DNA of 64,000 nucleotides from Fodinisporobacter ferrooxydans (lineage in GTDB: Bacteria; Bacillota; Bacilli; Tumebacillales; MYW30-H2), in NCBI RefSeq assembly GCF_022818495.1, contig NZ_CP089291.1, positions 620,001 to 684,000 of the forward strand. The letters are read 5' to 3'. The position numbers and the translations under genes are program-made. The notes below the pieces were generated by a model. The model was not told the origin of the DNA. It did no database searches and saw nothing but the letters and a program-made list of their open reading frames with translations. Each line of letters begins with the position of its first letter. The first letter of the stretch is position 1. Of the stretch, positions 28,102 through 32,234 are shown in pieces.

Positions 28102-28371
28102 CACCGATATCGTTATCCGGCAAATATTGAATGTTGAACAATTATTGAATGCTGTTGCTATTAATCCAAGCAATCGTTAGACTTGAATTAAATAGACTCA
28201 AGGATCGTTCCATCTTTCCTGTCACTGGTTTTATTTCGTTAAGGAAGTCGAATTGAAAGTCGAATTTGATAGAGCGAGATCGCATGCAAAGTGAAGACAT
28301 ATTTCCTTTTTGATACGGACAAAAGCAGTAAAATTTTAAAATTGCAGCCAATGTTCGAAAGGATGAACAAG
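28102..28371. other. Gap before the coiled-coil gene
   Basis: 270 bases between terminator and the next start. It contains the direct repeat TTGAATG-TTGAACAATTATTGAATGCTG near 28127-28152 and no supported gene. Only the ribosome binding site of the next gene (GAAAGGATG) is clear. Confidence 0.4.
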
Positions 28372-28905
28372 ATGAGCGAAAAACTAGAGTTAGTTTTAAC
28401 TCAAATTCAAAATGAACAAAAACGCCAAGGGGATATTCTTTTTCAACTCATTGGCATTGTGAACGACACAAACGAAACGTTAAATGCCGTTAGGCATAAA
28501 GTTGATATGCTGGAATACAAAATAGGTGACATCGAAAACAAAATAAGTGACATTGAAAACAAAATAGGTGACATCGACAATCAAATAAGGATCATTCAAA
28601 ACCAGATAAACACCTTGGAAACAAGAGTTGGCTCAATTGAAGAAAAAATTGATACTATTGAGGGCAAAATTGATACTATTGAAGACAAAATCGATACCAT
28701 TCAAACCGATATGCAAGTTCTAAAAGGCGGTCAAACAGGAATCCGTTCTGAAATCTCGGTTCGGTTTGCTGAAATCAAGTCCGACATCAAGGACATTCGA
28801 GGGGATGTTGAGTTTACATATGGAGAAACAACGAAAAACAAATTAGACATTGAACGAATTAAACGCCACATTCCGATCAACACAAGTACATTCATAGAGA
28901 AATAA
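28372..28905 (+). CDS. Coiled-coil protein with heptad repeats
   Basis: 177 residues, start MSEKLELVLTQIQNEQKRQG after AAAGGA at 8 bases. From about residue 45 to 120 it is an almost perfect heptad repeat, IGDIENKI-SDIENKI-GDIDNQI and then IDTIEGK-IDTIEDK-IDTIQTD. At DNA level two blocks of 21-bp tandem units encode this (28522-28585 and 28648-28710). No signal peptide or membrane segment; it is acidic and probably an elongated oligomer. Similar short coiled-coil proteins are common and unassigned in Bacilli. The repeats may change copy number by slippage. Its stop codon lies inside a terminator that resembles the toxin-antitoxin terminator at 16359. Confidence 0.75.
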   Translation: MSEKLELVLTQIQNEQKRQGDILFQLIGIVNDTNETLNAVRHKVDMLEYKIGDIENKISDIENKIGDIDNQIRIIQNQINTLETRVGSIEEKIDTIEGKIDTIEDKIDTIQTDMQVLKGGQTGIRSEISVRFAEIKSDIKDIRGDVEFTYGETTKNKLDIERIKRHIPINTSTFIEK

Positions 28906-28950: not shown

Positions 28951-29022
28951 TTTCATCCTACAAAGTTCCTACATCGATCTGGTGTGTTGCATACGACTGC
29001 TATAAGGCTCTTGCACCACCTA

Positions 29023-29298
29023 CTCCTGCACCAAATCCCACAATGTCAAATCGTGAAACATTTCCACAACATGTACCGGTAATGATGCCATCATTCTGAC
29101 TCCGACAGCTTTGCGCATCAGATAAACACTTGGCGTCTTGGATAATTGAAAGTCGGATGCAAGCTGTTCGGCAAGAGCGATCAATGCTTGTTGTTGTACT
29201 TTATCGGCGACTGCAACTGTCCAGCCGGTGTGATCTGCGATACGCTGCAGCCAATCGGGCTGGCTTTGTCCCCACTCCGGCGTGATAAACGTGATCTC
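29023..29298 (-). repeat. C-terminal protein repeat 3
   Basis: Encodes EITFITPEWG..., ADHTGWTVAVA and TPSVYLMRKAVGVRM. Aligns with the two upstream repeats by the shared order: strand ending in F-P or TP, 'TGW' about 25 residues later, and (T/S)P-x-(I/V)Y followed by V-x-V-like strand. Confidence 0.6.
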
Positions 29299-29538
29299 GA
29301 TCCGTTCATTGCGCAAAGATTTCTTGTAGATCTGAATTCCCTGTCCCGCAGCATCTTCATCGATCCATTGCAATGCACGATTGATTTCCATTCGTTCGCT
29401 TGTAGTCTGCGGCAGAAATTGAAACGGCTGAAAATCTCCGTTTGCAGTTGTATTTGCATTTGCATCCGCTTGTCTATGTGCCGCATGCACTGCCGCCACA
29501 TCTGCCAAAGGTTGAGCGTATGTCTGCTGTTCCCCGGC

Positions 29539-29838
29539 AAAACGCAACTGCCAGCCTGTCTGTTCGTGAAACAGTTTATTGGACGCTTCCATATCTTGCA
29601 CAGATAAACGAGTGGTTAATTGAACGCCTACTTCTTTTCGTTCCAGATAGATCGCCGGTGATCCTTTCACAGCCCCGCCCGCTTGTTCGACAGATGCGAG
29701 TGCAACTTTTGCCAATTGCGCCTGGTTTACGGATGGCATCCATTCAATCTTCCAGCCGGTCTCTTGCTCGATTCGTGCCGCAAATGCGGTTGCTTCCGGA
29801 CGATGTACGACTGCATCCGGAAAAAGCAAGGCAATTTT
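29539..29838 (-). repeat. C-terminal protein repeat 2
   Basis: Encodes KIALLFPDAVV..., IEQETGWKIEWM, SPAIYLERKEVGVQL, then a second FHEQTGWQLRF. The best conserved copy; it is separated from repeat 3 by a Gln/Ala/Asn-rich linker of about 80 residues. Confidence 0.6.
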
Positions 29839-29997
29839 GATCGTGCCAGCCAGTTGATCGAGTCCCGCCTTGTGCAATCCGAATGATTCGGGTATCAATT
29901 GCTTGACTCTGCGCAACGCTTCATTCTGTTCCATTCTGGTGACTGGGTGGCTCCCTGTTCCCGTTCCTTCTTCCCCTTGCCCGCGTTCACCATTTGT

Positions 29998-30297
29998 TTC
30001 CTCAAGCAATTGGATAAGAACCGTCCCGCCAATCTTCTCTGTCAGACTTTGCTCCATGTGCTGCCGTTGTACATCTGTTACTCGACCTTGCAGCGGAACA
30101 ACGATACGATGATCTTGCGGATAAATTTTAGGTGTCAAAGCAACTACATCCAATAACTTTGCCTGCTCTTCCACCAAGCGATTCACCGCTGGCGGATACA
30201 CATGCGGACTGATCTCATAGCGCCAGCCTGTTTGCTCCTTTTTTTCGATCGTTTGCCAAATGTCCGATGGAATGGCCCATGGAAAAGACACATATGC
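29998..30297 (-). repeat. C-terminal protein repeat 1
   Basis: Encodes AYVSFPWAIPSD..., KKEQTGWRYEI and TPKIYPQDHRIVVPL. The most diverged copy; a Gly/Glu-rich linker of about 25 residues and an amphipathic helix separate it from repeat 2. Confidence 0.5.
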
Positions 30298-32234
30298 TTT
30301 GAACACGCGCTGTTCTGCTACCGGCTCCGTTTTCCGCCATCCATACGGCGCCAACAGCTCCGCTACTTCATCGCCGCCATATGGATCGACAGGCACAAGC
30401 AAATCTTGCGCCTCGGCAATGTGATACGCAAGACGTTCTGCCGGGCGATATCCGTACATCCTGCCTTCCGCTATACTGGCTTCTGCCGCTTGCCATAACC
30501 CATCCATAAAGTCACTTGCATCTTCACCGCTTGGCACTCTGCCAAACGCATCGACGACCAACCCGACAGGAATCCGCTGTGATTCCCCTTTGGCAGAAAA
30601 AACCGTACACGTGCCGCCATGAACCTCTTTGCATATGCCTAAAGACAATTCTTGCTGCGTCTTGTTTTTGTACAACAAGATTTGATTCTGCCAAATGTCG
30701 GCACGCACCGGACGCTCTTCTGCCGGAACTTGCAAATGCTTGCGGATTCGACCTGCCACCTCATATGTCAATCCAACTTCCACGATCTCAATGTTCGCTT
30801 GCGGCAGATAGGAACGCAATTCACGGGCCAATCCTTGCTTGGATTCCTGATCTCCGTGTACCAGCAATATGCTTTGTGGCCGAATGTCTGTAACCAATTG
30901 TGTCAATTCACGACGGTCAGCATGTGCGGATAAGGAATACAAACCGACTTGCGCCCGCACAGGCACCACACGATCCGGCAAGATCCATTTGCGCTGTTCC
31001 GGTTCCTGTTTGGCAAGATCGAGCAACAGCCGCCCCGGTGATTCTTCATCTTGGTAACCGCACAGAAAAATCGCATTTTTTTCTTTCGCAGCAAGCATAT
31101 CCGCATAAAAAACAGACGGACCTCCTGTCAGCATCCCGGAAGAACTGATGATACAAGCAGGATCGCCTTGTACCACTTGCTGCCGTTCTTCCGGTTTTTT
31201 CACAAACTGAATGTCATCAGGTGCGAACAATCTGCCTTTGCTGCGTAATAACCGCTTGGCAGGACCTTGCAGCAAATGCGGATAGGATTCATAAATCGGA
31301 CAGATCGACCGCACCAATCCATCCACGACCAGCCGAAATGGTTTGATCTCTTTGTTGTAACGCATCGCATCTTGCAGGATCATCAGCACCTCTTGTGCTC
31401 GACCGACGGCAAACGCCGGAATCAGGACAAATCCCCCATTTTCGATCACCGCAGAGACTTGTTCGGCCAACGCTTTCTCTTGATTGGCCCGATTCTCATG
31501 CAAACGCGCTCCATACGTGGATTCTGTGATCACCGTGTCAAATGACATCCCTTTTGGAATCCGCAGTCCACCGATCAAACGGCCTGGTGCAACCGCATAG
31601 TCACCCGTTACCAATACGCTTCCTTCCGCTTGTGTCTCAAACCCGAGCGCAACTGCACCCAAGATATGCCCAGCCGAAAAGGTGGAAACACGAATCCCGT
31701 TCCATCCGAACATTTGATCTTGTCCCATCACATGTATGCGTGTCCACAATTCATCCAACTGGATGTCCTGAAATACTCTTGGTTGTCCATCCTGGCTGCT
31801 CAACCGCAATGCATCCGCCAGCATGACCCGGCTGATATCGAGTGTGGCTTGCGTCATATACACAGGAGCATTTGGAAACATGCTTCATAGGAGCGGCAGG
31901 CTCCCGATATGATCTTGATGCGCATGTGTAACAAAAATCGCGTCAATGTTAGCGCCATTCTGTTCGAGCAGCGCAAGATTCGGCAGCGGATCCCGTGGGT
32001 CCATCCGCACTCCTGCGTCTACCAGCCACTCCGTATGTTCTGTTTGAAACCACAGACAAGTTGCCCCAATCTCCGCGCCGCCCAGTACCGTAATTTTCAC
32101 TAAAATCCCTCTCTCATATCCTTCTCCGTGACAATATTTCAATAGTTAATCCAATCTATGTTTCAATGAAATCTTCAAATGAACTGAATGATCCATGATA
32201 AAGCCTACAAAAAACTGCAAGAGATTTCTCGATT

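What the first reader, a model, noticed from the sequence alone, without database searches (positions are those of the whole stretch)
29020..30300. Three tandem repeats of an unrecognised domain C-terminal to a beta-CASP nuclease
About 500 residues follow the MBL/beta-CASP/RMMBL core. Within them I see three units of about 95 residues with the common order: beta strand ending in F-P or TP, 'TGW' about 25 residues later, then (T/S)P-x-(I/V)Y and a V-x-V strand. Linkers are Gly/Glu- or Ala/Asn/Gln-rich. This architecture is not the RNase J or CPSF form I know. Repeats of this kind at the end of an RNA nuclease may bind RNA or partner proteins and could define a new family.
Basis: partly seen in the sequence, partly recalled or inferred. 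Interest (0 to 1): 0.62.

Follow-up and report, generated by a model that had tools for sequence, protein, structure and literature searches.

The report
Bacterial FttA-like nuclease with KH-like repeats
The repeats are real. They are copies of a small RNA-binding-type (KH) fold joined to the tail of a bacterial enzyme that resembles archaea's transcription-terminating RNA cutter, where such folds sit at the front, and the copy in this genome carries a premature stop.

Summary
Three tandem units follow a beta-CASP nuclease core, but each is about 110-145 residues and is itself two homologous modules of 60-70 residues (half A vs half B: hhalign probability 96.5, E 8.9e-10). U2 and U3 are unmistakable. 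U1 is diverged but significant. AlphaFold2 gives U2 and U3 mean pLDDT about 94-98 and the order alpha-beta-beta-alpha-alpha-beta, that of type II KH domains. Half A matches the second KH domain of archaeal aCPSF1/FttA (0 of 300 null comparisons reach it), and Foldseek's best PDB hit is FttA. So the fold is not new; the arrangement is: core first, KH-like array at the C-terminus, no GxxG motif, no N-terminal KH. The family is patchy but wide (32 of 398 Bacillota sampled, plus Chloroflexota, Poribacteria, Deltaproteobacteria, Myxococcota). Nearly all members have four modules; only this protein and one orthologue have six. Pfam and NCBIfam do not cover the array. Carriers keep Rho and RNase J, so the enzyme replaces neither. 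The window's gene has an in-frame TGA just after the metal-binding motif, and several relatives are decayed, so this copy is probably broken or misread. RNA binding by the array is inferred, not shown: it is net acidic and lacks GxxG.

The parts
29020..32100 (-). whole gene, GTG start with a GAGGG-type ribosome site, interrupted by one in-frame TGA
   Evidence: full-length orthologue L002 (G033) is uninterrupted, 54% identical
31885..31887 (-). in-frame TGA at residue 87, just after the HxHxDH motif; orthologues have Ser, His, Ala, Cys and others here
   Evidence: also reported as '1 TGA' by genome searches
30808..32100 (-). MBL / beta-CASP / RMMBL nuclease core (residues 16-446); metal and beta-CASP motifs HAHQDH, GHILGA, TGD, SAHAD, VHGD present
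30568..30684 (-). short beta-rich stretch (residues 488-526), possibly SH3-like, between core and repeats; low confidence
   Evidence: secondary structure; no Pfam match
30010..30369 (-). U1, diverged third doublet of KH-like modules (residues 593-712); only in this protein and G033
   Evidence: poorly modelled
29737..29937 (-). U2A, KH-like module (residues 737-803)
29518..29736 (-). U2B, KH-like module (residues 804-876)
29395..29517 (-). Ala/Asn/Gln-rich linker (residues 877-917)
   Evidence: mostly low pLDDT
29203..29394 (-). U3A, KH-like module (residues 918-981)
29023..29202 (-). U3B, KH-like module (residues 982-1041)

Best explanation
The gene encodes (or recently encoded) a bacterial relative of archaeal FttA/aCPSF1: a zinc-dependent MBL/beta-CASP ribonuclease followed by an array of KH-like modules (six here, four in nearly all relatives). 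SHOWN by computation: the repeats, the KH type II topology (predicted model), the homology of half A to FttA's second KH domain, and conservation of the catalytic motifs. [quoted passage not shown] The enzyme would then act as an accessory RNA-processing or decay nuclease alongside RNase J and Rho, not in place of them. In the window genome the in-frame TGA most likely makes the copy inactive or is a sequencing error. Separate confidences: KH-like fold and homology 0.87; array binds RNA 0.55; accessory role 0.6.
For: AF2 of the window's C-terminus: U2 and U3 pLDDT about 94-98, order alpha-beta-beta-alpha-alpha-beta. The same elements appear four times in a relative modelled full length. Foldseek: best PDB hits FttA 9bct (E 1.9e-5), then 2ycb, 2xr1, 3af5 and NusA KH domains. 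Half A vs four archaeal KHb sequences: hhalign probability 89.9, E 1.7e-6, 59 of 60 positions, none of 300 column-permuted controls reach it. NCBIfam aCPSF1 model positions 65-142 (the KHb region) match four members, E down to 4e-4. The core is nearer to FttA (2ycb, E 3.8e-56) than to CPSF73, Cas14, TTHA0252 or RNase J. Catalytic motifs invariant or nearly so in 27 aligned proteins. Rho and RNase J present in carriers.
Against: The GxxG loop typical of RNA-binding KH domains is absent, and the arrays are net acidic, median pI 5.8, so RNA binding is uncertain. Half B does not match archaeal KH directly and is linked only through half A. Whole-model TM-scores to FttA are low (0.1-0.13) because the model is multi-domain with flexible linkers. 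U1 was not modelled well. No gene neighbourhood supports a role.
Confidence: 0.68

Rival explanations
1. The KH-like array has lost RNA binding and works as a protein-protein or dimerisation scaffold, bringing the nuclease to a partner or holding a dimer together, as non-GxxG KH-like folds do elsewhere.
For: No GxxG, net acidic arrays, conserved polar surface-type motifs MEQN and NQNE at module starts. Foldseek also finds the ring-building PrgH/YscD domains with the same alpha-beta order.
Against: FttA's KHa also lacks GxxG (PMC3095777) yet contacts RNA bases in the termination complex (PMC11616081). The archaeal KHb segment itself is about neutral, so net charge decides little. The closest structural and sequence relatives are RNA-binding.
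Confidence: 0.27
2. Bacterial transcription termination factor: the enzyme engages nascent RNA at RNA polymerase and drives termination as FttA does.
For: Closest solved relative of both the core and the array is FttA.
Against: Rho is present in almost all carriers, the gene is patchy and often decayed, and nothing here tests binding to RNA polymerase or NusG.
Confidence: 0.12
3. The TGA is read through, for example as selenocysteine, so the window's protein is full length.
For: The genome has tRNA-Sec and SelB; three relatives have Cys at this position; the rest of the frame is open for 953 codons.
Against: No hairpin above chance after the TGA (z +0.30); the position is variable (Ser, His, Ala, Val, Tyr and others) and not catalytic; the orthologue at 54% identity has Ser; other relatives are plainly decayed.
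Confidence: 0.05

Closest known systems
Archaeal FttA / aCPSF1 (PDB 2ycb, 3af5, 2xr1, 9bct)
   Same: MBL/beta-CASP/RMMBL core with the same motifs; tandem KH type II domains; half A homologous to KHb
   Different: KH domains are N-terminal and two in FttA; here C-terminal and four to six, without GxxG; well below the NCBIfam cut-off (302.5 vs 580.2 bits); patchy and bacterial
CPSF73 / Ysh1 / INTS11
   Same: Same catalytic core; extra sequence C-terminal to the core
   Different: Their C-terminal dimerisation regions are not KH arrays (PMC11616081); more distant in sequence
RNase J
   Same: MBL/beta-CASP ribonuclease
   Different: 54 vs cut-off 400 bits; a separate RNase J is present in this genome
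TTHA0252-type bacterial beta-CASP RNases
   Same: Core only
   Different: 431 residues, no KH domains; more distant than FttA
Type VII CRISPR Cas14
   Same: beta-CASP core plus C-terminal extension
   Different: 199.7 vs cut-off 800 bits; ten nearby genes are not Cas proteins
NusA KH domains
   Same: Structural similarity of tandem KH domains
   Different: No nuclease; sequence relation not tested

Membership tests
aCPSF1/FttA | MBL-beta-CASP-RMMBL core with catalytic motifs | tested here: met
aCPSF1/FttA | score above NCBIfam TIGR03675 cut-off (580.2 bits) | tested here: not met
   302.5 bits
aCPSF1/FttA | two KH domains N-terminal to the core | tested here: not met
   core starts near the N-terminus in the window protein and most relatives; KH-like modules are C-terminal
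aCPSF1/FttA | transcription termination activity | not testable with these tools
   needs experiment
KH domain, type II | order alpha-beta-beta-alpha-alpha-beta | tested here: met
   AF2 models, high confidence for U2 and U3; predicted, not solved
KH domain, type II | sequence relation to known KH domains | tested here: met
   half A vs archaeal KHb; half B only through half A
KH domain, type II | GxxG loop | tested here: not met
   rare and not conserved (11 of about 160 modules checked)
KH domain, type II | Pfam KH models above gathering score | tested here: not met
   best KH_1 E 0.14, below cut-off
KH domain, type II | binds single-stranded nucleic acid | not testable with these tools
   needs experiment; arrays are net acidic
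RNase J | score above TIGR00649 cut-off (400 bits) | tested here: not met
   54 bits
Type VII Cas14 | score above NF045584 cut-off (800 bits) | tested here: not met
   199.7 bits
Type VII Cas14 | CRISPR array next to the gene | not tested
   no array search was run; ten neighbouring proteins show no Cas family

The most novel reading that the evidence does not exclude
A bacterial counterpart of archaeal FttA, with its RNA-holding KH array moved to the C-terminus, acts on nascent RNA beside Rho in several phyla: an FttA/CPSF73-type co-transcriptional cleavage route in bacteria.
Probability: 0.12. Interest if true: 0.85.

Novelty: new variant of a known kind. Interest (0 to 1): 0.56.

Why it matters
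Combining KH domains with a beta-CASP nuclease was described as unique to archaea (PMC3095777). Here is a multi-phylum bacterial family with both parts in a different order and with a repeat array that Pfam and NCBIfam leave uncovered. It makes testable whether bacteria have an FttA-like RNA-cleavage route besides Rho and RNase J, and what KH-like modules without GxxG do on a nuclease. Six searches of the held open-access library found no report of it; subscription papers and preprints were not searched.

Tried and rejected
Single-protein scan of genome contigs: no relatives; a 13-member alignment was too diverged for patterns; a five-member one worked. PDB profile hits to maltose-binding protein with the whole array are short TG-helix matches in fusion proteins, rejected. 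Butyrate kinase hits with half B: marginal (E 0.018) and covering only part of the module, rejected. Half B vs KHb directly: not significant. Long spacers of L084, L082, L104, L098 and L088 for hidden modules: none; the L103 and L101 hits come from the slice reaching into the first module. Conserved gene neighbours: only a generic ABC-transporter cluster recurs often. Replacement of Rho or RNase J: rejected, both coexist. Defence gene: PADLOC gave only a weak MBL-region hit. Selenocysteine: machinery present but no hairpin above chance.

Full report
WHAT IS THERE. The gene lies on the minus strand, 29020-32100. A GTG start at 32100 follows a GAGGG-type ribosome site. The frame runs through the MBL motif HAHQDH, meets TGA at 31885-31887, and stays open for 953 more codons. 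With TGA shown as W it is P0001. Pfam sees the MBL, beta-CASP and RMMBL parts (within residues 30-444) and nothing after them up to E 1. NCBIfam's best model is aCPSF1, 302.5 bits against a cut-off of 580.2; Cas14 and RNase J score further below their cut-offs. Against solved structures the core is nearest to archaeal aCPSF1/FttA (2ycb E 3.8e-56), then CPSF73, INTS11, Cas14 and TTHA0252.

THE REPEATS. Three units follow the core. U2 and U3 align with score 115 against a shuffle maximum of 59; U1 with U2 or U3 reaches 46-49, met by 3-7 of 2000 shuffles. A doublet profile from relatives finds U1 on its own, E 1.3e-5, at 30022-30336, and hhalign of doublets with U1 gives probability 96.0. Each unit is a pair of homologous modules: half A against half B gives probability 96.5, E 8.9e-10. 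So the basic repeat is 60-70 residues, paired, six copies here. Of 49 family proteins and fragments counted at 16 bits or more, 47 have four modules, one has five and one three. U1 was detected only in this protein and its G033 orthologue.

THE FOLD. AlphaFold2, given relatives from the search for related loci, models U2 and U3 with mean pLDDT of about 94-98 and the order alpha-beta-beta-alpha-alpha-beta. A relative modelled full length shows the same element order four times. This is the type II KH order (established knowledge; Grishin 2001, cited in PMC7785958). U1 and the linkers are modelled poorly. Foldseek's best PDB hits are FttA (9bct, E 1.9e-5) and the other archaeal aCPSF1 structures, with NusA KH domains and type III secretion ring domains behind. 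TM-scores are low because the query is a chain of small domains with floppy linkers.

SEQUENCE LINK TO FttA. The half-A profile picks 2ycb residues 71-130, the second KH domain, as its best PDB hit, though only at E 0.087. The NCBIfam aCPSF1 model matches four of ten arrays within positions 65-142, E 4e-4 to 0.015. Compared directly with four archaeal KHb sequences (taken), half A gives probability 89.9 and E 1.7e-6 over 59 of 60 positions; 300 column-permuted controls and a reversed control do not approach it. Half B shows no direct match. Together these make KH homology likely for A and indirect for B.

WHAT DIFFERS. In FttA, KH1 and KH2 precede the core (PMC11616081), and the combination was called unique to archaea (PMC3095777). 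Here the core is first and the array last. GxxG is not conserved; FttA's own KHa also lacks it (PMC3095777). Arrays are net acidic, median pI 5.8. In the clostridial relative, a helix-helix-helix-strand-strand stretch sits between core and array, with one weak winged-helix match, E 0.018.

DISTRIBUTION AND CONTEXT. The array profile matches 32 of 398 Bacillota genomes. A collection scan adds Chloroflexota, Poribacteria, Deltaproteobacteria and Myxococcota. Neighbouring genes are not conserved apart from generic families; near the window gene lie an NlpC/P60 protein, a HAD hydrolase, an ABC transporter and a histidine kinase. Rho and RNase J are present above cut-off in nearly all carriers checked; the exceptions, G371 for both and G178 for RNase J, are incomplete genomes.

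DECAY. G350 has a frameshift just before the array, while G255 has a 98% identical intact gene. G411, G327 and one contig of G259 hold shortened remnants, and G144 has a partial second copy. The gene is thus dispensable, and the window's TGA fits recent loss or a sequencing error. A restart at ATG 31881 would lack HxHxDH and so should be inactive. Selenocysteine is not excluded, since tRNA-Sec and SelB exist, but no hairpin above chance follows the TGA and the position is variable.

MECHANISM. In FttA the nascent RNA passes the active centre of one subunit and reaches the KH1-KH2 domains of the other, which contact U-rich RNA (PMC11616081). By analogy the C-terminal array would hold RNA near the groove. 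This step is inferred. A scaffold role is the main rival. Termination in bacteria is possible but unsupported beyond homology.

VERDICT. Observation confirmed with corrections; interpretation partly supported; a new variant of a known kind.

Noticed in passing
31885-31887: In-frame TGA in the nuclease gene just after HxHxDH; a restart downstream would lack the metal motif.
   Followed up: yes
L064 (G350), L105 (G411), L106 (G259), L107 (G144), L108 (G327): Frameshifted, shortened or partial second copies of the same gene in other Bacillota: repeated decay.
   Followed up: partly
L076 model residues 484-553; window 30568-30684: Winged-helix-like stretch between core and array in clostridial relatives; the window protein has instead a short beta-rich stretch.
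   Followed up: partly
G000 contig 1: 2667947-2668039 and 717664-719553: The window genome carries tRNA-Sec and SelB, so it probably makes selenoproteins.
   Followed up: partly
28291-28905: Heptad-rich coiled-coil protein (tropomyosin-like low-level match) convergent with the nuclease gene.
   Followed up: no
G353, G258, G234, G396, G208, G330, G375: A second, shorter beta-CASP protein (545-564 aa) beside the array-bearing one in one genus; too short to carry the full array, which was matched only once in each of these genomes.
   Followed up: no
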